From Scleroderma bovista (lineage: Eukaryota; Basidiomycota; Agaricomycetes; Boletales; Sclerodermataceae), in contig JAYMGJ010000172.1 of NCBI GenBank assembly GCA_037178675.1, forward strand, positions 124,001-188,000: a DNA stretch of 64,000 bases. Reading direction: 5' to 3'. Made by a program: the position numbers and the translations under genes. Under the pieces are notes generated by a model, which saw nothing but the letters and a program-made list of their open reading frames with translations, had not been told where the DNA came from and did not search any database. How positions within the stretch are numbered: the first letter of the stretch is position 1; each line of letters starts with the position of its first letter. Shown piece by piece: positions 1 to 28,849 of this stretch.

Positions 1-2
1 TT

Positions 3-4342: not shown

Positions 4343-4370
4343 ATGTCACCCCATTGGACTCTGACTGTAA
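4343..4370 (+). repeat. Inversion-breakpoint inverted repeat, left copy (28 bp)
   Basis: Starts ATGTCACCCC and ends CTGACTGTAA. The reverse complement is identical at 25750-25777. It is the only part of the gypsy element present in both halves, as expected if staggered breaks at an inversion end were filled in. Confidence 0.8.
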
Positions 4371-7300
4371 GATCGTTCTCGGACACAACTGGCTCACCCA
4401 ATACAATCCGTCGATTGACTGGGTACTGAGCAGTATCGAGTTCAGAACATCCATGCAACAAGTGCCAACCCCGAGCTCACTCCCTGACCCTGTAGCGCCC
4501 TCACCGAGCGCGCTGAGACTCGACGACACGTCAGTCTCGTCTCCTTCCACGACCGACTTGCCTCAGGCTCCCGGTCTTCGGGCACCTCCTATCACTCTCA
4601 TCAACGCTGCAGCCTTTCTGAAGGCTTGTCAGCTAGATGGCTCTCAACAGTTCTCTATTCAGCTAAAGCCTGATGGCAGCTTTCACACTGCGTCGGTCGA
4701 CGCTGCTCCCGACCTTTCCTCTGTCCCCGAGGCATACCATGACTTTGCCGATGTCTTTAGTAAGGCGAAAGCATCGGTACTCGCGCCTCATTGGGAATAT
4801 GACCTCAAGATAGAACTGGAAGAAGGAGCGCCATTACCACCCAGAAGACTCTATTCTCTCTCCCCCATCGAGCTTGAAACCCTTCGGGCATTCATTGATG
4901 AAAACCTTCACTTTGGTTTCATCCGTCTGACCTCATCCTCCCATGCAGCCCCTGTCCTCTTCGTCAAGAAGAAGGACGGCTCTCTCCAACTTTGCGTCAA
5001 CTACCAAGGACTCAACAAAATATCAAAGAAGGATCAGTACCCTCTACCTCTCATCTCTGACCTACTCGACTCTCCGAGTTGGGCAAAGGTCTATACTAAA
5101 ATTGACCTGAGACATGCTTACCACCTGGTTCACATTGCTGAAGGCGATGAGTGGAAAACCACCTTCAGGACTCACTATGGCTCGTACGAGTGGCAGGTGA
5201 TGCCCTTCGGTCTCACCAATGCCCCTGCAGCCTTTCAGCGATTTGTCAACTCGGTCTTCGCAGACATGCTCGATGTCTGCGTCGTAGTCTACCTCGACGA
5301 TATTCTAGTCTACTCGGACAACATGGAGGACCATACCAAGCACGTTCGGGAAGTGCTTCAGCGACTGCGCCAGCACAAGCTTTACGCCAAACCCGAAAAG
5401 TGTGAGTTCCATTTGGACTCAGTGGAGTATCTTGGGTACTTCCTCTCCCCCGACAGTTTGACAATGTCACAAGACAAAGTCAAGACAATATGCGATTGGC
5501 CCGAACCTCGCAAGGTGAAGGACATTCAGTCCTTCCTCGGTTTCGCAAACTTTTACCGTTGATTCATCTTCAATTACTCCGATATAGTGGTTCCCTTAAC
5601 TCGGTTGACATGGAAAGATGCCCCCTGGGATTTCTCCGACGTCTGCCGATGGTCATTCAATCACCTGAAGGAGGCCTTCACCACAGCTCCCATCCTCACC
5701 CATTTCCAGCCAGGCACCCAACTAACAGTCGAGACTGACGCTTCGGACTACGCGATCGCTGGTATCCTATCCATCACTGGTTTGGATGGCGAGATACAAC
5801 CGATTGTGTTTTACTCTTGCACTCTGACCACGCCCCAGCTGAACTATGATACACACGACAAGGAGCTTCTTGCTATTTTTGAAGCCTTCAAGGCCTGGCG
5901 TCATTATCTGGAGGGTCCTGCCTTCCCGATCGACATCGTGACCGACCACAAAAATTTGGAGTACTTCTCCACCTCTAAGGTTCTCACCCGTCGGCAAGCC
6001 CAATGGTCAGAATACCTCTCCTCCTTTAACCTGATCATTCGTTTCCGACCTGGTAAACTTGGTGCAAAGCCCGACGCCTTGACTAGACGCTGGGACGTCT
6101 ACCCCAAAGAGGGGGATAGGGGCTTCGCCCAAGTCAACTCACAGAACCTCTGACCAGTGTTCACGGCTGAACAGCTCACCAATTCCCTTCATGCGACATA
6201 CCTACATGCCCCAGTACTCAGAGCTAGTGCACTCATGGACGTCGAGCGTCTTCACGCCGATATCCTAGCCAACCTCCTGACCGATCCAATCGCTAAAGCC
6301 CACCTCTCAGACACATTGAACCCCCGATGGTCGACCGATGAAACTGGTTACCTACGTCTTGATGGCTGCATGTACGTCCCCGAGGCCGATGACCTACGTC
6401 TTCATGTCCTCAGATACAAGCATGACCATCCCCTATCGGGACACTTCGGTCAGAACCGCACTCTAGAGCTCATCCGTCGCGAATACACATGGCCAGGAAT
6501 TCGTACCTACGTAAAAGACTACGTCAAGTCCTGCACGGCCTGCGCCTGAGCTAAGACGCCACGTCACCGACCCTATGGGATGCTCAAGCAATTACTGGTC
6601 CCCGACCGACCATGGAATTCCATCTCGATGGATTTCATTGAGCAACTCCCATCCTCATCCAGCTTCACAGCCATTCTGGTAGTCATTGACCGACTATCAA
6701 AGCAAGCCATATTCATCCCAACTCACGACACAATAACCTCCCCTGAGCTCGCACAGCTCTTCCTACTCCACGTCTTCGCTAAGCATGGCGTCCCCGCACA
6801 TGTAACGTCTGACTGAGGCTCAGAGTTCGTCTCGCATTTCTTCCGTTCACTCGGTAAGGCCTTAGATATGAAATTACATTTCACTTTGGGCTATCACCCA
6901 GAAGGTGATGGACAGACCGAGCGAGCTAATCAAACACTCGAGCAATACCTCAGGATGTACTGCAATTACCAGCAGGACAATTGGTCGGACCTACTACCTC
7001 TCGCCGAGTTCGCCTACAACAATGCCCCTAGCGCTACAACTGGTGTATCACCATTCTTCGTGAACAAAGGATATCACCCGAACCTTGCTGTGCACCCTGA
7101 GCGCGATCTTTCATCGGCTCGGGCAAGGGAATATGCAGTTGACCTAGAGTCATTGCATGAGTACCTACGTGAAGAAATGGCTGCTGCCCAGAAAAGGTAC
7201 CAAGGCCCTGCTGACGCCAGAAGATCACCCGCACCCGACTTCAAAGTCGGTGATCAAGTATTCGTCAAAGCCAAGTACTTTAGGTCTACCCAACCATCAA

Positions 7301-7716
7301 AGAAACTCTCTGAGAAGAATGTCGGCCCCTACCCAATCATCGCCCAAGTCGGCACTTTATCATTCACAATCCATCTCCCTGACTCTATGCATGCTGTCCA
7401 CCCCGTCTTTCATGTCTCACAGCTCGAACCCGCGACACCGAACACAATACCAAATCGGTCACAACCTCCACCACCTCCCATTGAAGTCGACGGCGAACCC
7501 GAGTTCGAGATCACTGAGATCCTCGATTCAAAGTTCGACCGACGTCGACACCAATGCCCACTCCTCTACCTAGTTAGATGGGCTGGTTACGAAGGTACCG
7601 ATGAGGAAAAATCTTGGTTGATCGTGACCGAGCTTGGACACGCATCAGAACTTGTGGCCGACTACCACAAGGCCTACCTGACTAAGCCAGGCCCCTTAGA
7701 AAGCCTCTCACACTAA
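4345..7716 (+). pseudogene. pol: Gypsy pol polyprotein: RT, RNase H, integrase, chromodomain
   Basis: One frame runs from 4345 to 7716, interrupted only by TGA at 5560, 6151, 6547 and 6814. Domains in order: the end of protease (LDSDCKIVLGHNW), reverse transcriptase with VYLDDILVYS near 5290, RNase H with TDASDYAIAGI and TDHKNLEYF, the integrase HHCC zinc region ending CTACA just before the third TGA, the integrase core (SMDFIEQLP, HVTSD then a stop then GSEF, GQTERANQTL), and a C-terminal chromodomain with YLVRWAGYEGTDEEKSW. All four stops fall where arginine is expected, which fits CGA to TGA. The N-terminal gag and protease lie at 25750-27500 on the other strand. The element cannot make a full polyprotein without readthrough, so it is probably dead. 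Confidence 0.92.
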
Positions 7717-7797
7717 GTCACTCAGATCACCGAACAAAAGCCTATTCACAGTGTACAAAACAAAGTAAAAAGAAAACTAAATACAAATACGGTCCGA

Positions 7798-8846
7798 CTA
7801 CTCGGACTCGCCCTCTCCGTCTTCGTCTCCCGACTCTTCGCCTTCCCCATCCGTTCTATCTGACTCCTCCTGCTCCTCACTCTCCTCGGGCTTCACCTTG
7901 CCCTTGCCCTTCAGGTCCCTCGCATCTGCGACCCTCTTCATCTCCCAGGCTACCCCTTCTACCTTCCAACTGAGCTTCACCAGCTCCCTGGTGTTGCGAT
8001 CAATCGCAGCCATGATCTCCCCGAGTCAGCGGTCCAAGACCAGTGCGACTGGGTCTGGCCGACTCGACGGCCCAGCCACCGAGAACCCACCCATTGCTGT
8101 CTCTATTTCCTCGGTACTCGCGGCATCGGCGATCGCCTTCTTCGTCCGTTTCCATTTCTCGCCCCCCCTTGGCGACGTTGTCACCATGGCAATCTTGCTC
8201 TCCTTCCGTTTCTCGCTGCTCGCTGCTATCTCCATCGCCGTCGTCGACACACTGAAGGTGCACTTGACTTTTGATCGTTGACACCGACCGCACGTCGGCG
8301 TGCGCGCTCCGTTGGCCAGCTCGCACCCACTGCTGTCACCGTTCCGCCTGCATTGGTCACAAGGGGGCCTGAACCCCATGATGCCCGTGTTGGAACAGGC
8401 AGTTGCCTGGGGGGGCTAATCAAATAATAAATCAACAAAAAGTCAATAAAGAATTACTAATGACGCACCTTGGGCTTCAGCCCCAGACCCAAACGTTCCC
8501 TCATTGCCTCGCCAGCCGCCAGCGACTCGGCCTTCTCTCTTGCCCTCACCTCCGCCTCAGCCTTGCGCCTCGCCTCGAAATCCGCTCGCACCTTAGCCTC
8601 GGTGACTCGCTTCGCCTCCTCTTCAGCGACCCTTCTCGCCTCTTCCTCAGCCTTCTTCCTGGCAGCCTCCTCCGCCAACCTCCTCGCCTCTTGCTTGGCC
8701 GCCTGCTTCATCAGTCGCTCCCATCGCCGACACGACTGTTCATCGAACTTGGTGATTTGGACTTGGATCGAATCGGTCGGCTTCCCTTCCAACTCGGGCG
8801 AGGGGGCACGCGTCCAGTTGACGTTGTCGGTGTTGCTAGCGGACAT
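7798..8846 (-). pseudogene. Antisense ORF of the gypsy element: coiled coil plus Cys-cluster protein
   Basis: This gene lies between pol and the 3' LTR and reads against pol. Exon 1 starts at ATG 8846 and encodes a long Ala/Glu/Arg-rich helix, a probable coiled coil. An intron of about 60 nt (GTGCGT..CCCCAG, roughly 8398-8459) joins it to exon 2. Exon 2 carries a cysteine cluster, CDQCRR....C then CGRCQRSKVKC, resembling a fungal DNA-binding zinc cluster. A TGA at 8026-8028 interrupts the frame, again where CGA would give Arg. The frame then continues with an acidic Glu/Asp/Ser tail to 7798. About 315 residues in total. Intron, zinc cluster and acidic tail would suit a regulator. A role in control of the element is inference. 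Confidence 0.7.
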
Positions 8847-9011
8847 GTTCAAATCAAGGATGTTATGAAGAAGAGAATTTGTTGGGTTACCGTCACCGAA
8901 GGCCAGTCTTATATACGCCCTAACCGATTTTCAAACCCAGACAATGGTCGCACACATTCGGTGTGGAATATGCATTGCAGCCTCGTGGGCTCGGCCCTAA
9001 GAGGGGGATAC

Positions 9012-9636
9012 TGTCACGACCGTGACATCCGATCACCCTGTACCCTATTATCTGATCGTGTCCACGCGTTCGCCATCCGTTTTATTGTATGTACTCCTGT
9101 TTCCATTTCTCTCTATCTGTCCTGTATCGCCACCGATCAGTGAGCACGTTGTCCGATCTGTCTCTCTGTACTATTACCTAATATGTTTCCTTTCTCGTTT
9201 CCGGTTACTATATGTTCCCGTCCCATTGCATTACTAATACGATACTCATCGGTAATCCGGTTATTGCACTTACCGTACTTACTCAGCACGCAGCGCGACT
9301 GCGCTCGTCATTCGTCGGTAATCCTGACTTCCTGTACATCGCCTCATCCGTTCCACTCAGTATAAATACCTAGATACTCGGTCTGTTGTAGTTTCAGTTC
9401 AAATATCATATAAGATACTTCTCATCTGTTCTCTCTTCGTGCTCTCCATCTCTATCCTCGTACAAGCACTTGGTCGTAGACCGTTTACCCTCAGACTCTC
9501 CGTCAGACCCTCGGTCAGCCTTCCTATTACTCGGGAAGCGCGACTACGCTACGTAGCATCCCGGTCTTACTGCTAGGCCAACCTCTGACCCCAGATCCCC
9601 TGTAGAGATCAGATCGGTGAAGAACCGGTCTTGACA
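9012..9636 (+). repeat. 3' LTR of the gypsy element (625 bp)
   Basis: Begins TGTCACGACC directly after a purine-rich tract and ends GGTCTTGACA. It is the same length as the 5' LTR at 27503-28127 and clearly homologous. Many differences between the two are C/T or G/A changes at CpG sites. Confidence 0.9.
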
Positions 9637-9944
9637 GCATCTGCGGATGTTGTCGTGTACAGTACCCCACTAAGGGGTTCGTCCTTTAAAGTAAGAGTGA
9701 TCTGCACGAGAGCTTCTCGGTCTCTCGAGAGCCAATCTTCGTGTTCGACTGGATGAGTTACTTTGTCCGGTTGGGCTTCGTCTCCAGTGATGACTTTCCA
9801 TAGACCTCTAACACCTAAGACCATGTGGACACGAAATTTCCACATCTGGTAACGACTTGTACCGATGGACTTGACTGATGCCGTCGAGGCTACAGTTGAA
9901 GCTTTCATTTTTCTGGCTGTCGAAGCAGAGGGTGGAGTAGACAT
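9637..9944 (-). pseudogene. gag: Copia E1 gag, N-terminal fragment
   Basis: About 103 residues of a UBN2-type copia gag, with MWKFRVHMVLGVRGLWKV and ITLTLKDEPLSGVLYTT. Compared with the E4 copy, a dozen residues are missing before MWKF. The reading is cut at SADA by the gypsy insertion. The remainder of the domain (SERYEGKGKQS, MAANDKLTTDAV) lies 18 kb away at 28128-28755 on the opposite strand. Confidence 0.85.
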
Positions 9945-10321
9945 CTTGCGAGTAGGAGTAGTAGTCTTGATAGCACAAGTAGTATTGTTGCTTGTCTAGT
10001 TTTGTAGGCCAACAGGGCTCATAACCTTTTGTTAGATGGCTTGTGCAGGGAACTAGCTCAGAGGCAAACTCAGTGTCTGGTTTGGAACACTGAATATATA
10101 ACTGACCTAGCTCAGAGGCAAACTAAGTAAGTTAGTACTAAGTAAAGGAAAGTGTGACTAGATGTCTTACCTCAGTGTCTGGTTTGGAACACTGAGGTGA
10201 AAAGAGTCCTTGAGTGGATGAAAAATCCTTTGTGCTTACATAAGGATACTCATCGCACAAATAAGGAAACTATCAGTAAAGCCTAGGAGCCCGTTCAGGA
10301 ACCCGAGAGGTTGTGAAAACA
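9637..10321 (-). mobile_element. Copia element E1, 5' part: LTR and start of gag
   Basis: The LTR spans 10321 down to 10030 (292 bp, TG..CA). A primer-binding-like GGTTATGAGCCC follows, then gag from ATG 9944. The gag reads to ..TSADA at 9637, where the gypsy LTR begins. Its continuation (WKKLSE..) starts at 28128 on the plus strand, beyond the other gypsy half. The family is the same as copia E4 at 21160, with an LTR of identical length. Confidence 0.85.
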
Positions 10322-10473
10322 AGGTGTGTGAGTTGTTGGCACACTCCAGACCAGTGGCTGGGTTAGAAGCTGAGTTTGAAGCTTGAACCTTATCCTTCAA
10401 GCCATGGCTGATCAATTTGAACACTCTGATCTTCGACGCATCTGGGCAGCCTTAGCATCTCTGCTGGTGCTGG

Positions 10474-10739
10474 TGTTGGAGATAAACAGACTGTTATGGT
10501 TTGTTTATATACTTACATAAGCTTTCATCGCACTAGAGTAGAGTTACTATTACTATAGTTCCCTCAGTAGCTTGCCAGCATACTGAGGGTGAGTACCATC
10601 TACTAACCACCACATTACTGATACCTTGTAGTTACCTACCATACAGTAGCTTGCCAGCATACTGAGGTTATCCTACAGGTCTCCTCCTTTTCCCTTCCTT
10701 AGGCTAGATCTTCCCTGTGCAGACCACCACCTTTCTATA
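10474..10739 (+). repeat. E2 5' LTR (266 bp)
   Basis: Runs from TGTTGGAGAT to TTTCTATA, immediately before GGTTATGAGCCC. It contains two copies of an AGTAGCTTGCCAGCATACTG motif. Confidence 0.85.
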
Positions 10740-10818
10740 GGTTATGAGCCCTGGCTCTGCCTAGCCAGGAGGATAGGAATACCAAGAGAAAAGGAACCCA
10801 CTGGATAAATCAAGTGAA

Positions 10819-12171
10819 ATGGTCAAAGTTCCCGCACTCGCAGAAGATGGACAAAATTGGAAAATTTACCACACGAAGTTACTTGAGTACGCAGCCACAT
10901 GAAATTGGCTAGATGTATTAGCTGGCGCATCGGACGACGGAACATATGATTGGGAAGGGTACAATGCTCTATTACATGAGCTACTCCATGACACAGTCCC
11001 TATCTCTATCTACATCCGACTTCGTCACAACACCGCGCATCAAGTCTTTAAATACCTCGCGAAACATTTCCGCGACCGCGAACCAATTGCGGACCCCCAC
11101 GTGAAGAAACTTGCGACCTGCACAAACGATGACAAATGACATCCATCAGCAGAAAGCCCTACGAGCGAGAATGCAGCCACTGGCGCAGATCAGGAAGAAC
11201 CATCTACCAAAGACCTCATCCGAGGCACCAAAGACATCAACAATGGAATTGTCAGATGTGAAGACCCACGCACGAGCTTAGAAGCATCGGCGAAGGGCAC
11301 CAGCACCGAGAGCGCAAACGGGACAACTGTCCTACTCACAGGCGAGCCACACGAAACGCAAAATGTACCGCAAAACTCACTGCCGCTGACACCGAGGCTG
11401 CCAATTGATGGCAAGCCAGGCGAGTGCAAGCAGGAGGTGGCGGATGGCGTTGTGATGGCAGAGCGCATGATCAAAATGATCGTGGACGTTGACGAAACGG
11501 CCCTGCTGGGCAAAGAACTGGCAGAGAGGGTCCATGTAGTCAATGAGGGTGACAAAACGGAGCGCGACAGTCAATCGCGACTCCAACAAACAAATCTACC
11601 ATATGAAGAAAGCTGTCAGTGCAATGAAAATGGACGAGAAAATGTACCTAGCGCACATGGAGTACTGCTTGAGGGGGAGTGGACAAGATGTGCGAGTGGT
11701 GAGGCGAGCGACCCAAAAAGCAGCGAGAACCCATCTAACACAGCTGTTGAGCATGCGGATGGTTCGTACGAGCGACTCGGGCTCGTAAACGTTGATGGTG
11801 TCGAGTTGGAGGGCTGCAAGGGTGGTACAAGTGGGCGAGCGAGCGTTGACAAGACGGCCAGTGGTCCAGACCGTGGAATCGAGCGCATAGACGCTCTGAA
11901 CGAGCTCATGCAGCTCCAGACCATGTCGATCCAGTTGGAGAGCCCAGACGGTGGTGGGATACCATGTGTGCACCTTGGAGGCATGAGATCGTGCACAGAT
12001 GACACGAACGGCACTGGAAACCGAACGGATGTGTCAACGGGTGAGATGGATGAGTCGAGAGGCTGGATGGACGCTCTGGATGCATCAAACGGAGCTGAAA
12101 CAGCTGGTATGAGCTGTTATGAGGGTGCAGAGATGTACCTGGGCATTTTAGGGACACGAAACGTGTCGTAA
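10819..12171 (+). pseudogene. E2 gag-like ORF with acidic tail
   Basis: ATG 10819 opens a frame reading VKVPALAEDGQNWKIYHTKL and GYNALLHELLHD, typical of the start of copia gag (UBN2-like). TGA at 10900 and 11137 interrupt it, both plausible CGA-to-TGA sites. The frame then stays open to TAA at 12169-12171. The downstream part is polar and Gly/Asp/Glu-rich (RLGLVNVDGVELEGCKGG). I recall similar proteins in boletoid fungi but cannot confirm it. No zinc knuckle or protease is seen. Confidence 0.6.
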
Positions 12172-12383
12172 ATGCGACGGATGGTGTTGGAATCTGCACA
12201 GACACGTTGAACAGGCACACAGACGTGCCAAGCATTCAGACGCATGTGATAATTCCTGCAAACGTACCAGAGACTGTCAGCATACCCTGAAAGCGAGAGA
12301 AACCACCAGACTTACCTAGTCAAGGCACAAGACAGGCCCCAGAGGAGCCAAACGGCTACAGGAACCGTGCGGATGGGTCGAGC

Positions 12384-12923
12384 ATGCATATGGACATGCA
12401 GAGCATTGGAAACGCAATGGGAACGACTGCAAACAAAGCGGAGAGCGTCAGAACGCGTCAAATCGGGTCAAGGACGCAAGACTCACCTAACGGACACAAA
12501 ATTGCGACGCCCGAGGTTGTTAGACGATGGAGAATGGTCAGCATCGATGACGGAAATGTCTACATACTGTTGAACATGCCAATCGCATTCCCAAGCTGAA
12601 TATTTGTCTTTGGACGAGTCAAGAGCAGAGATGAGGCGATTGCGCCAAGTGTTGAGGGCGAGAGGGCTGGCAATGGCAACAGTGATGGATACAGAGATGG
12701 CGGAGATGTTGGCGACATGGGCGACACGACTGGCGGCGGCGGCGTTCACTCGACACAAGTGAAAATAGCACTGCTAGCTGAAGAGAGTCAGCATATGCGC
12801 CAAACTCAAAGAACGCGAAGCAACGACTTACCAGTATCGTCAAGGCCACCCACCAATCACACAAACCATCCATATGGACTCGTCAGGCATCGACGGCGAC
12901 GTGGAAGGCTCAAGATTGAGTGA
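12384..12923 (+). pseudogene. E2 second ORF, unknown protein
   Basis: A frame from ATG 12384 to TGA near 12923 with one internal TGA (12597-12599), where Arg would fit. It encodes a polar protein with RRWRMVSIDDGNVYI, a Gly/Asp-rich centre and a basic end (GLVRHRRRRGRLKIE). It is out of frame with the upstream gag-like ORF. It may be the end of the same original protein, joined by a lost frame or by splicing. No function assigned. Confidence 0.4.
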
Positions 12924-13547
12924 ATAAACATCAGCCAAACAAAAAAAGTCGAAACAACTCACCTGAGACACGCACACGCGACGCAGCCACCCAGGAACAC
13001 CCCAAACCAAGCCTATGGGATCTATAGACCCAGGCGTCAACACAGTCATATCAAGATCGCAACTATAAACATCAGTTGAACACAAAACGGCCAAATCACT
13101 CACCTTGGACACACTATCGCGATGCAGCCATTTCAGAGACCTAAAAAGCAAATAAGAAGGAGACCTCGAAAAAAGTTGGCTCGTGCAGGGAACTAGACAG
13201 AAGTGCTTTGTCAAACAATAAACTAACCTAGACAGAGGCTATAAGCAGGATGTCTAAATGGGGGAGCATCAACGGGACGATTGAAGACCATGGCACAACG
13301 ACGGAGGATGAGATCCGCGCGCTGCAATCGGCGCAGACATATCATATGGCCACGATGCAACTTACCAAATCAGGCAATGACATGGAAGTCACACACCACT
13401 CAAACTTTCGCATTCCACAAGTCTCAAATTCTATTTGTATTGGACACATTCATTTGGAACAACATTTTATTGGATATAGCTAAGTACACTCATTGATTAC
13501 TTTTACTATACCTTTCTTTCCATCACACCACTCTGTTTATGGGGGAG

Positions 13548-13919
13548 TGTTGGAGATAAACAGACTATTATGGTTTGTATATATACTTACATAAGCTTTC
13601 ATCGCACTAGAGTAGAGTTACTATTACTATAGTTCCCTCAGTAGCTTGCCAGCATACTGAGGGTGTGTTGGAGATAAACAGACTGTTATGGTTTGTTTAT
13701 ATACTTACAGGCTAGACCTTCCCTGTGCAGACCACCACCTTTCTATAGGGTGAGTACCATCTACTAACCACCACATCTACCTACTGATACCTTGTAGTTA
13801 TCCTACAGGTACATACTAATATAAAGTAGCTTGCCAGCATACTGAGGTTATCCTACAGGTCTCCTCCTTTTCCCTTCCTTAGGCTAGATCTTCCCTGTGC
13901 AGACCACCACCTTTCTATA
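13548..13919 (+). repeat. E2 3' LTR (372 bp) with a nested mini-LTR
   Basis: Matches the 5' LTR except for an 87-bp insertion (13666-13752, the mini-LTR plus one target copy) and small changes. A purine tract precedes it. Confidence 0.85.
13666..13747 (+). repeat. 82-bp mini-LTR inside the E2 3' LTR, with TSD GGGTG
   Basis: Its first ~44 bases match the start of the E2 LTR and its last ~38 match the LTR end, with the middle missing. It is flanked by GGGTG at 13661-13665 and 13748-13752. It looks like a solo LTR of an internally deleted relative, inserted by integrase into the 3' LTR. Confidence 0.8.
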
Positions 13920-14619: not shown

Positions 14620-14906
14620 TGTTGAAGTTGCATGTGCACCCGGCATAAACCGTCGACGAAGTGCGCACAAGACTGCGACCCATATTAGTGTAGACTTAGT
14701 AATAGTCCTCCTTAGAGTAGATGTTACATGTCACACGTCACGCGTCACAGTCACGCATCACACTATTTGTTGTATATAAACAGCATTCATCGCTTATATA
14801 ATATAACAGCTCTTAACCAGCTACCACTACCATCTCAGGTTGTGCACTCCACCAACAGGTGAGTTGGAGTAGCAGTTCCTCTATGTACATAGGTATTGCT
14901 TCAACA
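14620..14906 (+). repeat. E3 5' LTR (287 bp)
   Basis: Runs TGTTGAAGTT..TTCAACA. It contains TATATAA-like sequence and about 20 bp (a TCACGC-type repeat) absent from the 3' LTR. Most point differences from the 3' LTR are at CpG sites. Confidence 0.92.
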
Positions 14907-18200: not shown

Positions 18201-20218
18201 CTGAGGAAGAGCCTAATCAAATAAATCCTCCCCGTACACCATCTCCAGTGCCTCCACTGGCACCGAGAACGCCTTCACCGGCGAGAAATCCGCCACCTCC
18301 GGCACCGCAGCGCCCTGGCTGAGCTGAACGCCGCCAGAATGCACCGCGACCTCCTGCAGTGAATATCCCTGCCTGCCCCCAACGTGAACGTAGAGCGCCA
18401 TTGCGCCCCAGTAACGTGTATGGTGAGCGGCGACATCCCGTTGAGCAACTCCGGGATATCGAAAGTGCCTCTCGATGGCGAGAAACAGTGGGTGAGGTCC
18501 CTAGACCCCCACAACTGGACACACCAGACCATGTTCCTGGTGGTTTCCCTGACACCTCTGCAACGCCCAGTGAGGAAGATGTGCAAAAGATGTGCGAGGA
18601 AGGGGGAGCAAACCTAGTCCGTTATCTGATGGGCAAAGCCCTCGAAACCCGCGACCCTCAATATGAGAGTGTCCGCAACTGGTCCTATAAGGACATTGCT
18701 CGCTTACCCCAAGCTGAGCAGAAACTCTGGCGACTTGCTTGCCAAGAAGAGCTCGACGTGCTGCGAAAGCGCAAGGTCTTTGAGCTAGTTGACCGTCCCC
18801 GAGACCAGAAGGTCATTAAGAATTGATGGGTCTTCAATGTAAAGTCGGATGGCCGCAAGAAAGCCCGCTTAGTAGCGAAAGGCTTCTCCCAGGTCGAGGG
18901 ATTAGATTTCGACCAGGTCTTCTCACCAGTTGTGCGCTTTGAAACAGTGTGCCTCATGCTTGCGCTTGCCGCACTTGAGAATTGGTATATCACTGGACTC
19001 GACGTTCGGAGCGCCTACTTGTATGGCAAGCTCGACGAAGAGATCTACATGGAACAACCCAAAGGGTTTGCAGTTCCTGGGCAAGAGCACAAAGTGCTCC
19101 GCCTTTGGCGTGCCCTCTATGGCCTCAAACAGGCCGGCCTAGCTTGGTGGCGCACACTCAATGAGTCTCTCAAAGAGCTCGGGTTTGAGTGCCTTAAGTC
19201 TGAAGCAGGCATCTTCTTCTACAAGAAGAAAGGCACCAACATTGTCATCGGGATTATCTACGTTGACGACGCACTATTCTGCGGCCCTAACAAGGCTGTT
19301 GTTGATGCCATTAAAGCGCAGTTCATGCGCAAATGGGAGTGCAGAGACCTTGGAGAACCTAAGGAGTTCCTCCGAATGTGAATCACTCGCAAGGGTCGCG
19401 CTATCCACTTGGACCAATGCACGTACCTACAAAAGGTCATCGAACGCTGCGGCATGCTCAATGCAAAGTCCGCAAGCACCCCACTGCCGGCTGGCTACTA
19501 TGCCGCCAAGAATACAGAGCCTGTTGATGCGGAACTCCGCTCCCATTTCCAGACAGTTATTGGGTCCCTTCTGTACCTTATGTTAGGCACTAGGCCCGAC
19601 ATTGCTTTTGCAGTCACCCATCTCTCGTGCCATGCCACGAACCCATCCCAGGACCACCTGTCCAAAGCACTTTATATCTGTCGCTACTTGATTGGTACAC
19701 CTAACTACTCCCTAGTGTACAATGGTGGATCCGGTGCTGGCCTGATTGCATGCACGGACTCAGATTGGGGATCAGACCCTATCTCTCGCCTCTCGCAGAC
19801 AGGTTTTTACCTGAAGCTTGCAGATGGCTTGATCAGTTGGACTTCTTGTGCGCAGAAGACTATTGCGTACTCGTCCACTGAGGCCGAATACATGGCTTTG
19901 AGCGATTGCGCTCGCCAAGTTACCTGGATTCGAAGTTTGCTCGGTGAGCTCGGCTATAAGCTGAAAGCTATCCCGATTTGCGGTGATAATCAGGGGTCCA
20001 TATTCATGGCATCCAACCCTGTAACGGAGCCTCGCTCCAAGCACATCGACATCTGCTACCACGGAATCCGCGAGTCAGTCGCGAAAGGTAATGTGGAGCT
20101 ATTCTTCATTGATGGTGCTGAAAATCCCGCCGATCTGCTCACCAAGAACTTACCCCGCGAGAAATTCGCGAAGTTCAGAGCTCAACTAGGCTTACAGTTT
20201 CCCTCTGGCAGCATCTAG
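15290..20218 (+). pseudogene. gag-pol: E3 copia gag-pol polyprotein with four internal TGA
   Basis: One frame of about 1,640 codons from ATG 15290 to TAG at 20216-20218, broken only by TGA at 16802, 18320, 18824 and 19379, each at an expected Arg. Order: gag (FTGSNWQQWHTSMQAYL, then a Gln-rich and basic stretch), a Cys-rich segment (CSCLNDARCAGCKGK), protease (WLLDSGASRHFTGD), integrase zinc region (HRRFGHP, CPRCALGK), integrase core (VHSDLKSFP, GRAERLGRTL), reverse transcriptase (KARLVAKGFSQ, IIYVDDALF) and RNase H (CTDSDWGSD, STEAEYMALSD). The second catalytic Asp of integrase appears as Asn (MSNAGGEY near 17528), again explained by a CpG change. No frameshifts, so the insertion is fairly young. 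Confidence 0.93.
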
Positions 20219-20264
20219 CGCCTTATTCGCTGAAGTGCTCTACGTGCAGCACAGCGAGGGGGAG

Positions 20265-20531
20265 TGTTGAAGTCGCACGTGCACCCAGCGTAAACCGTCG
20301 ATGAAGTGCGCACAAGACTGCGACCCATATTAGTGTAGACTTAGTAATAGTCCTCCTTAGAGTAGATGTTACATGTCACACGTCACACTATTTGTTGTAT
20401 ATAAACAGCGGACATCGCTTATATAATATAACAGCTCTTAACCAGCTACCACTACCATCTCAGGTTGTGCACTCCACCAACAGGTGAGTTGGAGTAGCAG
20501 TTCCTCTACGTACATAGGTATTGCTTCAACA
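20265..20531 (+). repeat. E3 3' LTR (267 bp)
   Basis: Starts TGTTGAAGTCGCACG after the purine tract and ends TTCAACA directly before target copy CAATC. Confidence 0.92.
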
Positions 20532-21159
20532 CAATCCCCGTTGATGCCAGTACAACTTCAATGTCTCAGTCACCTTCTCTGTCTAGCTTCCTTCAAAGTG
20601 GCTTAGCAGACAAAAATAGCAACAGCATCATGACTAGCACCAGTTATATGCGCCCCCCCCTTCCAATCCATCAAGCAAAGGCAAATGTCGCCTTGCAGAA
20701 ATCACTGATGGCGACCCTGTCGTCACATCTAACTTCAAGGAGCTACCATATGCCCAAACTGTCTCGTCTTCTGTGAAGACAGGGCCTGCCACAAAGAAGA
20801 GGAAGGAGAATGCCATGGTTGAGTCAGCTGCCACAATGTCAATGGATGATGTGATGGTGATTGCCGCAACACGGTCTTCCTCACGCCATGCTTGGGCAAG
20901 AGTGGCAGATGCACCTCAAGACCTGATGTTAGTGACCCTAGTTGGTGCTGTTTCTCACCTGGCAGGCTCCATTGAGCGCACAATGCAACCAGCAGAGGAG
21001 CACATGAGCACAAAGAAGCAACAAGCTATTCGTATTCTGGAGGACGAGCACAATGATTTGCTTATCAAACAATGGATTACTCTCCTCCATCGCATCGGAG
21101 AAGATGATTATTTAGCAGATGTTTTGACTTTAGTTCAGAAGGACCACTGCAGTGCATAC

Positions 21160-22195
21160 TGTTGAAACTCCTATCCTTTCACTACCATTCTTTAGGCTTA
21201 CTGATAGTTTCCTTATTCATATGGCGAGTATCCTTACATAAGCATGGACTATTTTTCATCCATTTGGGGATTCTTTTCACCTCAGTGTTCAAAGATGAAG
21301 CACTGAGGTAAGACACGTGCTCACATTCATTTAGTTACTCAGTACTAACCTACTTAGCTTATAGCCTCTGTCTAGGTTAGTTATGTAGTGTTCAAAGACA
21401 AAGCACTGAGCTTATAGCCTCTGTCTAGTTCCCTGCATGAGCCAACTCACAAAAGGTTATGAGCCCTGCTGGCTTATAAACTAGACAAGCAACAGCACTA
21501 TCTAAACTATTCCTATGTGAAACATGTCTGGCCCATCCTCAGCTTCGATGGCCAGGAAAATGAAGTCTTCAACTGTAGCCGCGTCGGCAGCAGTCAAATC
21601 TGTGGGTTCAAGTCGTTTGTACGACGTGCCTTCACTGGAAAACGACAGAACAAATTTTCAAATGTGGAAATTTCGTGTCCGAATGGTCTTAGGTGTCCGA
21701 GGCCTATGGAATATCGTTAGTGGAGACGAAGCCCAGCCGGATGAGACGACTCACCCGATCAAAAGTGAAGAGTGGCTTTCAAAGGATCAAGAAGCCCACA
21801 CCCAAATTACTCTTACCCTAAAGGACGAGCCCCTTAGTGGGGTGCTGTACACAACATCGTCTGCAGAAGCCTGGAGGAAATTGAGTGAGCATTACGAGGG
21901 GAAAGGGAAACAGTCCATCACCTACCTTATAAGCGAGCTCTTCTGCAGCATGCTCTCCAATGACGAGTCTATGGAGACCCAGTTAAACTCCATGCAGCAA
22001 AAGGCCAATGTATTAAAAACCCTTGGCCAGCTGCTTGAAGACTCCCTTATCGCGATAGCTATGGTAATCTCGCTCCCATCTTCATATTCCACCCTGTGGA
22101 CCATTTTAATGGCCGCCAATGACAAACTTACGACGGACGCTGTAATAAATCAGGTCCTGATCGAAGAAAGGTTTCTTCTACCCTTTCGGCTCTTG
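21160..22195 (+). mobile_element. Copia element E4, 5' part: LTR and gag
   Basis: LTR 21160-21451 (292 bp, same length as E1), then AAAGGTTATGAGCCC and a gag ORF from ATG 21524. Homology to E1 ends near 22195, and no pol follows, so the element is truncated. The LTR is inserted in the Myb/SANT-like gene, and its first six bases supply a Cys codon and stop. Confidence 0.85.
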
Positions 22196-22210
22196 CCGCT
22201 GTGTGCCTAA
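21524..22210 (+). pseudogene. gag: Copia E4 gag (UBN2-type), truncated
   Basis: About 228 residues. It starts MSGPSSASMARKMKSSTVAA, then MWKFRVRMVLGVRGLWN, LKDEPLSGVLYTTSSAEAW, RKLSEHYEGKGKQS and AANDKLTTDAVINQVL. It is open without internal stops through the domain. After VLIEE a small deletion shifts the frame, and it ends at 22208-22210 before the zinc knuckle that E1 retains (CTYCLKSGHTKDEC). It is the best preserved gag of this family in the window. Confidence 0.85.
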
Positions 22211-23174
22211 GTGGGGGAAGAGGTCAGAACAACCAACAACCAACACCAAATGACAGCAAAATGTGAGTGGTGGTCTTCCTTTGTGTTTCTGGTATTTAAT
22301 CTCCTCAGGGGGATGTGCTGCATGCCTTCAGGCAGGATGCAGGAGGGAAGGGAAGGGCTTCTGATGGGGATGGAATGTGACTGGGGATTGTATTGACTCC
22401 TCTTCAGCCTACCACAGTGGTTAGGAAGAGTCCTGGGATTGAGCAGCGATGATAGATTGATGATAGGGGTGGAATAGCAGTGATGGAGCAACAGGGAAGC
22501 AAGGGGACAGTTCCTGCTTCAAGAATGTGATGGACAGTGATGGGATGGAGTGGACAGAGATGCTAGACTGCGCTTCAGCCTAGAGAAATGATCAGATACA
22601 AGATATATCTGATAAACAACAATATAGGAGCTTTAGGCCAGCACTGGGTGACCTACAAGTCCAAAGACAGAGATAGAGCTTATAGACAGAGAGGGAGAGT
22701 GAATTTGGTCGCTTTATTGAGGGGGAAGCAGACACTTCCTTACAGCCTTTGGCTGCTGGTTTATATACAGGAGGGCTGTGGCCCTGTAAGCACAAATGAC
22801 TAAGTGCTTGGTAAGACATCAGCAAACCCACCCTCATGTGTCCAGACCTGGACAGTTCTGGGCAGAGCCCCAGGACCTCCAGAGTCCCCTAGCAAGGTAC
22901 CCAACTGGCTAGGAGTGTCCAGAACTGTCCCAGACTTGGACCAGAGCTTTAAGACACTGGAAAATCATAAGATGTTTGTGAGCAAGCCACACCAACAGAT
23001 CTGTCCATATCTGTGAAGGTCTAGAGTAACTGTGTTTCAAGTTTGTGCCAGGCTAGTAGTTGGTATAGCAGAATCAGACAGCTTGACAGCAGCAAATGAC
23101 ATCAATTACTAAAAGCGACAACAACAGAAAAAAACTACTGCAACGACGGATGAAGTACGATTAGATAAGCATGA
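22211..23174 (-). repeat. Gene-free stretch, possibly an LTR on the minus strand
   Basis: No convincing coding. 22211-22590 is purine-rich and repetitive. On the minus strand 23090-22590 has a TATA-like TATATAAACC followed by a CAATAAA signal, the layout of a retroelement LTR. I could not find clean ends or target copies. Confidence 0.3.
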
Positions 23175-25639
23175 TTAGTCAAGGTCCACATCAAAGTTTG
23201 TTGTTGCGGCCACGGCAGCGTCATTTTCCACCGTACCATTGCTATATCAATAGATCAGTAAAACAGAGTCATTCGATTTTATGTAATGACTCACCTCCCA
23301 ATCCTTGCCCACTCAATTCGAAGTGACCTTGTCTTCACTGCATGTGTTGGGGAAGTGTCACATTTCTTCATGAGGCCGAGAATCTCCAAGTAGACAGGCG
23401 TGTACGTGGCAACTCTGAATGTAACTTCGCCCTGCGAAGTTGCCATTTCATCGAGTACAACCTTCAGCTTAAGTTTAGTTAGTACATGTCCGCAACAAAA
23501 TGTGAAGTAAAACCAAAAGTACCGCCATGGCAGAAATGGCAACCGTAACTCTTGGGACCTCCGCTGCAAAGACCTCAGGAAATAGCTGCCCGACAGAGGA
23601 AGTACCACTATAAAAGAAATCTATAATCAGTCCCGAGAGTGCAGGATGTGCCAAGTTGTTGGTATGTCCCTGAAAGCAGATCAGACACGGGTAAATGAGC
23701 ACGTACTATGTGACTTACCTGTTCGTCTATGCCATCCCTCAAAAATGCTCCGCGGTCTCCCAATAGGTCCTTCGCAATGGCAGTATTCACTTCTCGGCGG
23801 TTGTTTGGGTCCCACTTGTAGCGTTGAGTCACGTACATGCGAGCTTTCTTCCTCAATGATGAACGCCAATTTCCGAGATCCTCCCAGAGCTGCAGAGCCT
23901 CATGTAAGCCATATATGTTAGACGAAGGTTTCACTTACCAGTTTGCATATATCATTAGAATGTTAAGGCCACCAACCTGGGAAAGGGTAACATTAGCTGG
24001 AATATTGGGTGCATGATACCATACCATCTGCAACAAACAAGCCCTGAGACTGTCTTTCACTGATCGCTTCTTCAACATACTCTGCAGCCTTGACGTTGAA
24101 CTGCGCACGAAGAGGGAAGGCATTAATAGATGAAGCATCGCAATGAGAAAACTGCTTTGCCCGTTCGAGTACGTCCCGAACTGCCAGCTCGTAAAATTGA
24201 ATCTGCGAGGGCTCTGAGCGTTCCATGCGCTCCACCGGAGGACCTGCACGAGGTTGAGTTGACTGGTTTGATACCTCCTTTTGGTTGTCAGCACGAGGTT
24301 GTGGGAGGGAAACTGAAGAGGCCGTCAGCTCCGGGTCTTCTTGCACATCGGGCATATTGGTATTTGTGGTCTTGTGAGACCGTGGTGGGATGGAAGATTG
24401 TTGTTGTCGGATAGTTTTCAATTGCGAAGTATTGGGGAGACGAGGAGCGCGGTTTCGTTGGTGATGCGCAACCACGACGTCTTCAGCAACGCGAGTATCT
24501 TCTACATGTGTGCTTGTCAGCTGATTGATTCTTGAGTAAAGTATGAATCTTACCAGCACGAGTGGCCGGACGGTCCCGATTCAAGTCTGTCCAAAGGTTT
24601 AGTGAAATCGGCAAGCGATGGCCATGATTGTATACCTTGAACGGGAGTGACATAGACTGCCGTGGGTTGAGAACCTTTTAGATGACATTAATCAGAAGTG
24701 CACACGAGCATTCAAACTAAATACCTCGGATGACAGCCTCTGCAAACCTCTCATCGTCACTCGGTGATGTCTCGTCGATGTATTGTCCTTCGTCTGCATA
24801 TTCTCTGGGTTGAGCACCAATTCCGCCACGATCTGGACTTGGGACTGCTAAAAGTGTGTGACCGCGACGAAGTTGGTGCCCGTCCAACGAGGAGTAAAAC
24901 GATGCTGTGTGCCGCAGGCCAGGAGGGCGAGGAGGAGAAGTCGGCCCATCTAATTCATCACGCTGGAAGGACAGTGGGATAACTGATATTTGAGATAATA
25001 AATCAGTGCGCGAATTCAAAACAATATAAGCTGACCTTCGGGTGGGTCAACGGGAAGATCAGGAGAGAGCGAGGTTGTCGTTCCAGACGACACTCGAGAG
25101 ATTCGAGCAGGAGCCTCGGAGCCGGACTGCGATGCTGATGCCAACCTTTTGAGGTGGGATGAGAGGCCATAGGCGCGGGGTTGTTGGCCAATGTCTGGAT
25201 CTCCTTGGGATGAGGGGCAGACAGAGGCTGCACGAGAAGTTGGGGCGGTGGAAGGACGGGAAGCGTTGCTGAAAGTAGTACTGACACGAGATGAAGATAA
25301 CTGAGAGTCTGCGCTACCGCAACTCGATTCGACCTGGCCTCTGGAAACTTGGCCAGTGCCTGGCAGCCTAAAACCGAACTGTTGATCCGGAGCTGCCAAA
25401 CTGAAGGTCGGTTGGGCAGAAAGTGCGACTTGTGAGGCGGTAGCACTGGGGGGAACATGGCGAAGTCTTGGTTGGGGTCTTCCAGAGTGTCGGTTTTCTA
25501 TGGTCTGAGAGCCAAACTCCTGGTCTAAATGAGAAGGGGCCATAGGATTTACCTCTTCTCCCTGGGTTGCAGAATCGAGATCCGTGAGTCGTCTAGGCCG
25601 CCGCGAAGCACTGGTCTGCGCTCGCTCAATGCTCCTCAT
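23175..25639 (-). CDS. DUF6532-domain protein
   Basis: Multi-exon gene reading leftwards from ATG 25639 to TAA at 23177-23175. The first ~350 residues are polar, Ser/Pro/Arg-rich and presumably disordered. The second half has the DUF6532 signature in pieces split by short introns: FYELAVRDVLERAKQFS, YVTQRYKWD, ALSGLIIDFFYSG, GQLFPEVFAAEVPRVTVA and EVTFRVATYTPVYLEILGLM. The last intron ends in GATATAG, and the final exon encodes NGTVENDAAVAATTNFDV and a stop. Function is unknown; this domain is expanded in agaricomycetes. The start codon lies about 110 bp from the inversion breakpoint, so its original upstream region may be the flank at 4069-4342. Exon joins are inferred by eye. Confidence 0.7.
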
Positions 25640-25749
25640 CTGTGCGATTTGACCTCCGGTACCTTTTCCACAGCGTGAGACTGCCTGACCGCAACATTTC
25701 CTTCTTCAACTAGATGGTTGAATGAGTGGAGAGATATTCAACAAGTAGA

Positions 25750-25777
25750 TTACAGTCAGAGTCCAATGGGGTGACAT
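25750..25777 (-). repeat. Inversion-breakpoint inverted repeat, right copy (28 bp)
   Basis: Reverse complement of 4343-4370. To its left, protease coding breaks off into unrelated sequence about 110 bp upstream of the DUF6532 start codon. Confidence 0.8.
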
Positions 25778-26119
25778 ACAATGTCATCGGGGTGACGTCG
25801 CCAGAGGGAAAACGGATAGGTAGATCGGTTGCTTCGGTGATTATGGTGGTGGTGGTGCCGTCGAATAGACGGAGAACGATTGGGGATACCGAGTAGCGTG
25901 AAAGAGTGTTCATATTGGCAAATGACGGATCTACAAAACAGTGGGTAGAACCCGAATCTACTAACACAGGAAAGGAAGGCATAGTATGGTCAACAATTGT
26001 TACAGAGGGTCGGAGAGAGTTTGGATTGGAAAGAGTGGCTGCATTGAGTCGGGCCTCCATAGGTGCACAGTTGGGAACAACGCAACTCCCACTCTGTGCG
26101 GAGTCTCGGGAGTTGCTAT

Positions 26120-27500
26120 CTATTTTTTTGCCTCGGTGGAGGCCGTCGGTTTGGCTTCAAACATGTTGTTCGTAGTAGTGGTGGTAGCTGCCCTAGCCTT
26201 GGCTGCTCGAGAGCCTGACTTGGGGCAGTCCTTGGCCTTGTGGCCAGTTGCACCACAGAACATGCACAGATTCATGTCGAACCTGCGCTTGTGTTCCTCA
26301 GAGGTCAGCTTGCCATCCTTGCCAAGCTTGTCCGAAAGCTCAGCAGTCTTGCCCGACTTGTTAGTTTTCTGAGTCGGGGTTGACGACGAAGAAGACTGGG
26401 CAGCGTTGCCCGAGGGTTTACCCTTATCGGTTTTACCTGACTTGGTGTTGGGGGTGTTGGTACTAGTGCTGGTAGAGGTCTTGTTCTGATGAGCGACCTC
26501 TTCCTTGCGTTCCCAATATTGGGCGTCGATCTCCTGGGTGAGGATGTGAAGACCATTCAGAGTGCACGGTTTACCGACGTGGCTGATCTCGTCCTTGATT
26601 TGGTCGGGGAGACCTGTGTAGAAGTGATGACGCAGGGCACCATCGCCATAGCCCCAAATCTGGGACGCGATATGGTTGAAATCAACCACGTATCTGTTGG
26701 CACAATGGTTTTCCTTCATGTGGAGGTGGTCAAGCTGATGCTCAGCGTCGGCAACAGGGTCGTGGGGACCGAAGGTTGTTTGGAGTTCAATAACGAACTC
26801 TTCCCAATCGGTCATCCAGATCGGACGGTTGTGGGGGTCTCCTGCACCGAGTAGGTCTGGCTCGAACCATTCAAGAGCCATTCCTTTGAGGTAGGATTGC
26901 GTGAATGTGACCTTGGTTCGGTCAGTGCGAAACACCTTCGGTCGGTCCTGGAAGTTGAGCTCACACTGGACTAGGAATGTGCGCAACTTCTTTGGATCGG
27001 TCCCATCGAAGGTGTCAGGTTCGCGCACCTTGGTGCGAGACGAAGACTCGGATGAGCGCGAAGATCGCACGAGTCTGTCGATAGCGATGGAGAGGTTATT
27101 GAAAATGACTAGACCAGCCTCTTCTTGGTCGGGGATACCCTCAATAGGGTCTTCACCACCATCATCAGGGTTTGGATCGTCGGGGTCATTGGGACCATCA
27201 CCACCGGGACCACCGTCACTGGGGCCATTGTCATCGGGATGGTCACCACCCAGGTCATCGCCGAGGTCTTCGACGAAAGCCCCAGGTGGGCGACACTGAG
27301 CAGGGGAGGAGGCTCTCCGAGCGGAGAAGCCTTGGAATTGGGAGACAGAGTCGGGTGAGCGCCTGAGGCTAGTCAGAGTGCTTAAGGCAGCAGCCCGACG
27401 AGTGTCGGATGCTGAGGGTTCTGGGTTGTTTGCGCGAGTGAGTTTGGATTGTCCTGGACATAGATGATTGTGAACTCGTACAAGACTTGAGTTCGAATAT
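26120..27500 (-). CDS. gag: Gypsy gag with CCHC zinc knuckle
   Basis: The frame is open from the end of the LTR to TAG at 26122-26120, with no internal stops. After a polar start and an Asp/Gly/Pro-rich acidic stretch, the retrotransposon gag domain follows: PDTFDGTDPKKLRTFLVQC, SYLKGMALEWFEP, HCANRYVVDFNHIA and FYTGLPDQIKDE. A basic Ser/Thr/Lys linker leads to the zinc knuckle CMFCGATGHKAKDC. The start codon is uncertain: no ATG is in frame near the 5' end, while an ATG at about 27463 (MSRTIQT) is in another frame, so a small frameshift there is possible. The stop comes right after an A7 run. Confidence 0.85.
26123..26129 (-). promoter_or_regulatory. A7 slippery run at the gag-pol junction (possible -1 frameshift site)
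   Basis: Gag ends GCA AAA AAA TAG. Slipping back one base reads on into the frame of the protease without another stop (KIDSNSRDS.. then the ATG at 26060). The layout fits -1 programmed frameshifting, but no downstream structure was tested. Confidence 0.5.
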
Positions 27501-27502
27501 AC

Positions 27503-28127
27503 TGTCAAGACCAGTTCTTCACCGATCTGATCTCTACAGTGGATCTGGGGTCAGAGGTTGGCCTAGCGGTAAGACCAGGATGCTACGTAGCGTAGTTGCA
27601 CTTCCCAAGTAATAGGAAGGCCGACCGAGGGTCTGACGGAGAGTCCGAGGGTAAACGGTCTACGACCGAGTGCTTGTACAAGGATAGAGACGGAGAGCAC
27701 GAAGAGAGAACAGATGAGAAGTATCTTATTCGATATTTGAACTGAAACTACAACAGACCGAGTATCTAGGTATTTATACTGAGTGGAACGGATGAGGCGA
27801 TGTACGGGAAGTCGGGATTACTGACGAATGACGAGCGCAGTCGCGCTGCGCGCTGAGTAAGTACGGTAAGTGCGATAACCGGATTACCGATGAGTATCGT
27901 ATTAGTAATGCAATGGGACAGGAACGTATAGTAACCGGAAACAAGAAAGGAAACATATTAGGTAATAGTACAGAGAGACAGATCGGACAACATGCTCACC
28001 GATCGGTGGCGATACAGGACAGATAGAGAGAAACGGAAACGGGAGTACATACAATAAAACGGACAGCGAATGCGTGGACGCGATCGGATACTAGGGTACA
28101 GGGTGATCGGATGTCACGGTCATGACA
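27503..28127 (-). repeat. 5' LTR of the gypsy element (625 bp)
   Basis: Reads TGTCATGACC..CTTGACA on the minus strand. Partner of 9012-9636. It holds a TATA-like stretch (TATAAATACC) and starts the transcript towards gag. Confidence 0.9.
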
Positions 28128-28755
28128 GATGCCTGGAAAAAGCTGAGTGAGCGCTATGAGGGGAAAGGAAAACAATCTATTGCCTACCTTATAAGCGAGC
28201 TCTTCCAAAATACACTCTCGGATGACGAATCTATGCACAGTTGAATTCCATGCGGCAGAAGGCCAATGTGTTGAAAACGCTTGGCCAACCGCTCGAAGAA
28301 TCTCTCATTGTGATTGCCATGGTAATCTCACTCCCACCTACCTATTCTACTCTTTGGACCATTTTAATGGCCGCCAATGACAAACTCACAACAGATGCTG
28401 TCATCAGCCAAGTCCTAATTGAGGAAAAGTCGAGGAAGATAGCCTCGACTCATTCGGCTCTCGCCGCGAAGACAACGGGATGATCTAAACAGAAAGGAAA
28501 GGGAAAAGTTAGTAAAGAGGAAAAAGGAAAAAAGGCATGCACTTACTGCTTGAAGAGCGGTCATACCAAGGATGAGTGTTGGGCCAAATGAGCCGCTGAA
28601 CGCTCATCAGAGAAAGATGATACATCAAAGGAGCAAGCTGATAAAAAGGAGTTAGCGGCTCGCATCACGAAAACGGGATCAACCCACTTACCACCACTCC
28701 GTCTATTCTTGGCACAACAGACCAGTATCCCTATTCAAAGGGACTGTGTCGTCGA
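28128..28755 (+). mobile_element. Copia element E1, remainder of gag (continues from 9637)
   Basis: Reads AWKKLSERYEGKGKQS, MVISLPPTYSTLW, AANDKLTTDAVISQVL, then the zinc knuckle CTYCLKSGHTKDECWAK and a trace of the protease region (DCVVDS). A small deletion near 28235 shifts the frame, and TGA at 28481 and 28589 fall at likely Arg codons. Element homology stops near 28755. Confidence 0.8.
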
Positions 28756-28849
28756 CTCCACTCATCAGCAAAACCAGAGGCAGCTGTCCAGAGCTGGCCA
28801 GCACTGGACAGTGTTATAGTATTCATAGCAAGGGTCCACCTGTGGAGTG

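What the first reader, a model, noticed from the sequence alone, without database searches (positions are those of the whole stretch)
4343..28132. A 21.4-kb inversion split one gypsy insertion and its host copia gag in two
The 3' half of a gypsy element (4343-9636, +) and the 5' half (25750-28127, -) meet at the same 28 bases. Each half has its outer LTR edge followed by the same 5-mer (GCATC at 9637, GATGC at 28128). A copia gag stops at 9637 (SADA) and resumes in phase at 28128 (WKKLSE). Inverting 4343-25777 restores a full-length element with target duplication inside one gag gene. Independent events would not reproduce all three coincidences.
Basis: partly seen in the sequence, partly recalled or inferred. 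Interest (0 to 1): 0.88.

Follow-up and report, generated by a model that had tools for sequence, protein, structure and literature searches.

The report
Small fungal inversion cutting nested retrotransposons
In a mushroom-type fungal genome a 21-kb stretch of DNA appears to have been flipped, cutting one retrotransposon (itself sitting inside another) into two facing parts and leaving a 28-base duplication and a probable loss of several kilobases at the breaks; this is a clear example of a known kind of chromosome accident.

Summary
One Ty3/gypsy insertion lies as 4343-9636 (+) and 25750-28127 (-). The parts share a perfect 28-mer in opposite orientation, carry the same 5-bp target duplication, and interrupt one copia gag in phase. 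Related copia copies have the site uninterrupted; in C39 GATGC occurs once. The parts total 7,644 bp; five of six other LTR-to-LTR spans are 7,655-7,679. The two LTRs are sisters in a tree with moderate support only.

The inversion reading is supported, with a correction: only the gypsy side is clean. Opposite it, transposon T lacks the outer 79 bp of its right repeat. The sequence facing T (22817-25749) is the terminal 2.9 kb of an 11.66-kb Plavaka-type transposon, cut inside a gene. About 9 kb seem lost (inferred). Both joints are blunt.

Best explanation: one end-joining inversion with a staggered 28-nt break in gypsy that was filled in, plus a deletion at the distal break, as described in Drosophila. 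No reads, allele or sister strain could be examined, so a chimeric assembly is not excluded. New example of a known kind; modest interest.

The parts
1..4342 (+). Right part of DNA transposon T (starts left of the window at about C172:122502; 208 bp of right terminal inverted repeat at 4135-4342); DUF6589 ORF on - strand (1910-3445) and a further ORF (3442-4098). Truncated at 4342: outer 79 bp of the repeat missing
4343..4370 (+). 28-bp duplicated segment of gypsy at joint 1, blunt joint T|gypsy at 4342/4343
4343..9636 (+). 3' part of gypsy element (RT, integrase-end SH3 domain, 3' LTR)
9012..9636 (+). 3' LTR of gypsy, 625 bp
9637..9641 (.). Target site duplication copy GCATC
9637..9962 (-). 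5' part of copia A gag (copia sequence recognisable on to about 10286)
21521..22199 (+). gag of second copia copy C2, cut by repeat R; uninterrupted at the gypsy target site (21866-21870)
22200..22816 (+). Repeat R, read as an LTR (starts TGTGTG), truncated after 617 bp; 27 of 27 other copies fetched run on past this point
22817..25749 (-). Terminal 2.9 kb of a Plavaka-type DNA transposon P; natural end at 22817, broken inside an intron-like stretch of its gene at 25749
25750..25777 (-). Second copy of the 28-bp segment at joint 2, blunt joint P|gypsy at 25749/25750
25750..28127 (-). 5' part of gypsy element (5' LTR, gag with zinc-knuckle match just under the Pfam cut-off)
27503..28127 (-). 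5' LTR of gypsy, 625 bp
28128..28132 (.). Target site duplication copy GATGC
28128..28762 (+). 3' part of copia A gag and following sequence, 92% to C39 copy
4343..25777 (.). Inverted block
   Evidence: inferred from all of the above

Best explanation
One inversion of about 21.4 kb by non-homologous end joining. A gypsy element had inserted long ago into the gag of a copia element (shown). Later two sites broke. In gypsy the two strands were nicked 28 nt apart; both overhangs were filled in, so each end of the block carries one copy of the 28 bp in opposite orientation (footprint shown, steps inferred). At the distal site the DNA between the right terminal repeat of transposon T and the interior of a Plavaka-type transposon was lost: at least about 9.1 kb if P, R and T were whole before (inferred). 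The block was religated inverted, with blunt joints (shown). No function is evident; the effect is that gypsy, copia A, T, R and P are all broken.
For: Perfect inverted 28-mer, none in 100 shuffles. Same 5-bp target duplication and in-phase gag, with the uninterrupted site in other copia copies. Sum of parts 7,644 against 7,655-7,679 bp in five of six other copies. LTRs sister (84/88) with two shared private bases; 28 of 33 differences are CpG transitions. T broken 79 bp inside its repeat: a query across the left repeat matches the right end only up to 4342. P broken at 25749 although its gene is continuous in C377, C19 and C373. P is a complete element in C377 with CATCAGCAAACC ends and a TT duplication. 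The 500 bp of P beyond the break occur at high identity only in C377 (other matches 68-70%); the outer T repeat occurs at 100% only at T's left end and at 95% in C196. No microhomology at either joint.
Against: No uninverted allele or strain seen; one inner stretch tested (11000-12200) has its best long match at 74% (query bases 107-1191 of 1,201), 77% over 703 bases and at most 89% over 203 bases, 40 of 70 candidates scored. The two window LTRs differ more (33/625) than seven other pairs (1-16); C525 is as close to the 3' LTR (32/625) and C373b, C421 and C372_3 tie at 33 for the 5' LTR; the best non-self match of the 5' LTR is an LTR on C373 (985 bits), not the 3' LTR (982). The 3' LTR shares three private bases with C588, all at CpG columns, more than the two it shares with the 5' LTR. 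Three of six other same-strand LTR pairs lack matching TSDs, so chimeric copies, real or assembled, occur here. The ancestral joint T...P was not observed.
Confidence: 0.8

Rival explanations
1. Assembly or library chimera: the flip is an artefact of joining pieces of repeats in a repeat-rich, 850-contig assembly.
For: Three of six other same-strand LTR pairs lack matching TSDs, and C558 has a gypsy 3' end facing the rest of a copy without matching TSD. No reads available.
Against: Both joints have no shared bases, so there is no repeat for an assembler to slip on. Two chimeric joins would have to fall on the same 28 bp of the same insertion. No N in the window.
Confidence: 0.12
2. Circle route: LTR-LTR recombination left a solo LTR in gag and a one-LTR circle; the circle, opened with a 28-nt stagger, patched a break between T and P; later recombination between the inverted LTRs flipped the block.
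For: Gives the same end arrangement, explains the TSD and the 28 bp at both outer ends, and would fit the LTRs being more divergent than other pairs.
Against: Needs three steps instead of one. The LTRs are sisters with two private shared bases (moderate support), which fits one insertion without further steps.
Confidence: 0.04
3. Alternative transposition: the transposase of T or of the Plavaka-type element cut ends of the elements and rejoined them to make the inversion.
For: Both elements lie exactly at the joints; a paper on maize inversions by alternative transposition came up (PMC8225341, search listing only).
Against: The breaks are 79 bp inside T and 2.9 kb inside P, not at their termini; the duplication at the gypsy joint is 28 bp, not the 2 bp of P.
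Confidence: 0.03
4. Ectopic recombination between inverted repeats (LTRs or the two copia copies) made the inversion directly.
For: Inverted LTRs and inverted copia copies exist in or at the block.
Against: The joints lie in non-homologous sequence; 4343 is 4.7 kb and 25750 is 1.7 kb from the nearest LTR edge.
Confidence: 0.01

Closest known systems
Staggered-break (end-joining) inversions of Drosophila, e.g. O4, O8, O7 of D. subobscura (PMC5080602, PMC7584159; passages seen)
   Same: Segment single before, present inverted at both ends after; duplication from one breakpoint only also reported (O8); a deletion at the other breakpoint also reported (O7)
   Different: Fungal genome, 21 kb (those inversions are much larger, recalled), 28 bp against 58 and 534 nt proposed for O7, break inside nested transposons, only the derived state seen
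Intra-chromosomal inversions of Dothideomycete fungi (PMC3516569, passages seen)
   Same: Inversions within fungal chromosomes are common there
   Different: Breakpoints there are associated with simple repeats; no 28-bp type duplication mentioned in the passages seen
Inversions by ectopic recombination between TEs (PMC12368964, passages seen)
   Same: TE-rich breakpoints
   Different: No homologous repeats at the joints here
PlavakaB transposons (PMC12730594, passages seen)
   Same: Element P: CATCA..TGATG termini, 2-bp TSD, Plavaka transposase domain
   Different: P also carries a fungal protein kinase gene; the word kinase occurs twice in that paper and the passage shown concerns IS3EU, not Plavaka

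Membership tests
Staggered-break inversion | Inverted copies of one segment at both ends of the inverted block | tested here: met
   28/28 identical
Staggered-break inversion | Segment single in the uninverted order | tested here: inconclusive
   Single in seven of seven related gypsy copies; no uninverted allele or strain available
Staggered-break inversion | No homology between the joined sequences | tested here: met
   0 bp microhomology at both joints
Ectopic-recombination inversion | Inverted homologous repeats at both joints | tested here: not met
   only the 28-mer itself is shared by the two joints
Alternative transposition inversion | Joints at transposon termini with the element's TSD | tested here: not met
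   breaks inside T and P
Ty3/gypsy LTR element | TG..CA LTRs, 5-bp TSD, gypsy gag and RT | tested here: met
   (Ty3_capsid, RVT_1, SH3_Tf2-1 above Pfam cut-off; chromodomain and zinc knuckle below it)
PlavakaB (element P) | Plavaka transposase, CATCA..TGATG ends, 2-3 bp TSD | tested here: met
   criteria from PMC12730594; tested on the complete copy in C377

The most novel reading that the evidence does not exclude
The flip was one multi-break event set off by recent movement of the young DNA transposons T or P (a transposition-linked break with resection into both elements), so that active fungal DNA transposons reshape decayed nested-retrotransposon islands by inversion with loss of several kilobases.
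Probability: 0.1. Interest if true: 0.45.

Novelty: new member of a known kind. Interest (0 to 1): 0.3.

Why it matters
It is a base-resolved footprint of an end-joining inversion in a fungus, readable because the broken sequences are nested transposons with other copies as references. It shows that a single assembly can be mined for such split insertions with TSD, LTR phylogeny and summed length as internal tests. The biology itself is expected.

Tried and rejected
Clean two-break inversion: rejected, since T and P are truncated at the distal joint. The idea that 4342 is the natural end of T: rejected, since the opposite end and the C196 copy run 79 bp further. The idea that 22817-25749 is a whole element or a repair filler: rejected after the complete copy in C377, its uninterrupted host unit (C650, C203) and gene continuity in C19 and C373 were found. 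T inserted inside P or R: no similarity of L029 (C172:114001-124000, T's left flank included) to L030 and L097 (P) or to two of the R loci, L043 and L052. Remainder of copia C2 left of T: a 7-kb stretch with a related copia copy (L094) has no match in L029. Allelic contig with the old order: one inner stretch tested, none found. LTR divergence taken alone as proof against one insertion: 28 of 33 differences are CpG transitions, so weak.

Rows dropped: of 24 LTR stretches fetched, chosen by me from the 40-row lists (L090 and L091 by expected position), L091 held no LTR and C235_3 (L090) aligned over only about 330 columns (its pair value 73/326 is not counted as a pair; it was left out). Other same-contig LTR pairs in those lists (for example C463, C686) were not examined for TSDs.

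Papers: fungal precedent was looked for (0, 1 and 1 paper; PMC3516569 then searched for passages; PMC8225341 seen in listing only); some searches were not limited to fungi. Of those listed, PMC2773423 and PMC10085805 were searched for passages and held no like case in the passages shown. The library is partial; nothing is claimed about absence from print.

Full report
Setting. The window is G000:C172:124001-188000 in a 51.8-Mb, 850-contig genome. The best named relatives of the T protein are from Boletales fungi (Melanogaster, Boletus, Pisolithus, Suillus; 65-72% identity; one unnamed fragment is 95% over 53% of the query; best 120 of 908 listed), so the host is probably a member of that group; the order name is recalled and the species is not known. 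The region is a stack of nested transposons.

The gypsy insertion. The 3' part (4343-9636, +) holds RT and an integrase-end SH3 domain; the 5' part (25750-28127, -) holds a Ty3-type gag. Seven related copies (L002-L008) were compared with each part apart. In seven of seven the alignments of the two parts overlap by exactly the 28 bases, and in the three whose letters were printed at this point (L004, L005, L007) the 28-mer stands once between sequences matching the two parts. The 28-mer occurs twice in the window and in none of 100 shuffles. The parts sum to 7,644 bp after counting the 28 bp once; of six other copies five measure 7,655-7,679 bp between outer LTR edges and one 6,650 (from coordinates). 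So no sizeable gypsy sequence was lost at the break.

One insertion, not two. Both outer LTR edges are followed by GCATC. The flanks are the two parts of one copia gag. In the copy on C39 they are contiguous, overlapping by exactly the 5 bases of the duplication, and the reading frame runs through. Of 43 matches listed for the joined flanks, seven span all 654 bases, five of them at 87-89%. The other copia copy in the window (C2, about 21.2-22.2 kb) also has the site uninterrupted. As a contrast, C558 holds a gypsy 3' end facing the rest of a copy, without matching flanking 5-mers: opposite parts alone do not produce this agreement.

LTR evidence, for and against. The two window LTRs differ at 33 of 625 sites, more than seven other LTR pairs (1, 1, 4, 5, 11, 12, 16; the 12 is C558, an opposite-strand pair). 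Of the 33, 28 are CpG transitions, so decay by cytosine methylation would explain most of the distance. In a tree of 24 LTRs (2 window, 22 others) the two are sisters with support 84/88, which the tool marks as not shown and not rejected, and they share two bases seen in none of the 22 others; one of these sits at a column where two others have a gap. Against this, the 3' LTR shares three private bases with C588, all at CpG columns, where repeated change is likely; C525 is as close to the 3' LTR (32/625) and three LTRs tie at 33 for the 5' LTR; by bit score the 5' LTR matches an LTR on C373 slightly better than the 3' LTR (985 against 982). The LTRs favour a single old insertion but do not prove it; the TSD and gag carry the case.

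The distal joint. T is a DNA transposon with a DUF6589 ORF; its left terminal repeat starts at about C172:122502. A query across that repeat matches the right end only up to window 4342, 79 bp short. Among 25 matches of this query the outer repeat is present at 100% only at T's left end, at 95% in C196, and at 89% or less elsewhere. On the other side, 22817-25749 is 99% identical to a stretch in C377. There it is the end of an 11.66-kb element with 12-bp terminal repeats CATCAGCAAACC/GGTTTGCTGATG and a TT duplication, sitting in a unit that is uninterrupted in C650 and C203 (the C377 copy of that unit also lacks about 1 kb present in C650). It encodes a Plavaka transposase, DUF6830 and a fungal protein kinase. 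Termini and TSD fit PlavakaB as described in PMC12730594 (passages seen). Position 25749 lies inside what looks like the first intron of its terminal gene (intron read from the sequence by eye): in two paralogous loci, C19 and C373, homology to C377 runs through this point without a break. So 22817 is a natural end, shared by three copies with different neighbours (window, C377, C280), and 25749 is a break. The element had inserted in repeat R, read as an LTR of about 930 bp, which is itself inserted in copia C2 and stops after 617 bp, where 27 of 27 other copies fetched run on. The 500 bp of P beyond the break occur at high identity only in C377; the rest of the missing 8.73 kb was not searched piece by piece. 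Adding about 315 bp of R and 79 bp of T, at least about 9.1 kb is missing if all three were whole before. This is inference.

Joints. T|gypsy and gypsy|P share no base at the junction with either continuation. Blunt joins, a 28-mer duplicated in inverted orientation and loss at the other side agree with what is described for end-joining inversions with staggered breaks (PMC5080602, PMC7584159, PMC12368964; passages seen). PMC7584159 also notes that such duplications could arise in repair rather than from staggered nicks; that cannot be decided here. Inversions are known to be frequent in some fungi (PMC3516569, passages seen).

Order of events. gypsy into copia A (33/625 between LTRs); R into C2; P into R (23 substitutions in 2,934 aligned columns against C377, 20 of them CpG transitions); T (1 difference in 208 bp of repeat); then the inversion, which cuts gypsy, P and T and is therefore younger than all of them. 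The relative order of the earlier insertions is partly unresolved.

Doubts. No reads, allele or second strain could be examined. One stretch inside the block (11000-12200) has only diverged relatives elsewhere in the candidates scored, so the assembly shows no second haplotype there. Three of six other same-strand LTR pairs lack matching TSDs, so either recombination between copies or assembly error is common in this family.

Noticed in passing
C377:8009-19669 (L030, L097); similar gene set at window 29975-34863: An 11.66-kb PlavakaB-type transposon carries a fungal protein kinase gene (PF17667) next to Plavaka transposase and DUF6830; the window holds a fungal kinase ORF (31538-33298) and a DUF6830 ORF (33814-34863) in a similar order.
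   Followed up: partly
C558:25400-26381 and 26803-28500 (L098): Another gypsy copy whose last about 975 bp, including the 3' LTR, faces the rest of the copy, without matching target duplication.
   Followed up: partly
gypsy copies on C372, C645, C670: LTR pairs with 1-11 differences but non-matching flanking 5-mers (3 of 6 same-strand pairs), suggesting recombination between copies or assembly error.
   Followed up: no
window 9012-9636 / 27503-28127 and 22817-25749: Divergence is mostly CpG transitions (28 of 33 between the LTRs; 20 of 23 against C377), as expected from cytosine methylation of transposons.
   Followed up: partly
window 10473-10740 and 13547-13920: Direct repeats of 97-98% about 3.1 kb apart around an ORF without Pfam match (11140-12171) with many diverged relatives in the genome; possibly a non-autonomous LTR element.
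   Followed up: partly
window 14620-14906 and 20265-20531: Direct repeats (96%) enclosing copia-type integrase and RT ORFs: a further copia element inside the inverted block.
   Followed up: no
window 28809-29112: 38-bp tandem repeat array downstream of the copia A gag remnant.
   Followed up: no
window 50763-51051 and 39685-39963: Tandem repeats of 72 bp (4 copies) and 144 bp (2 copies).
   Followed up: no
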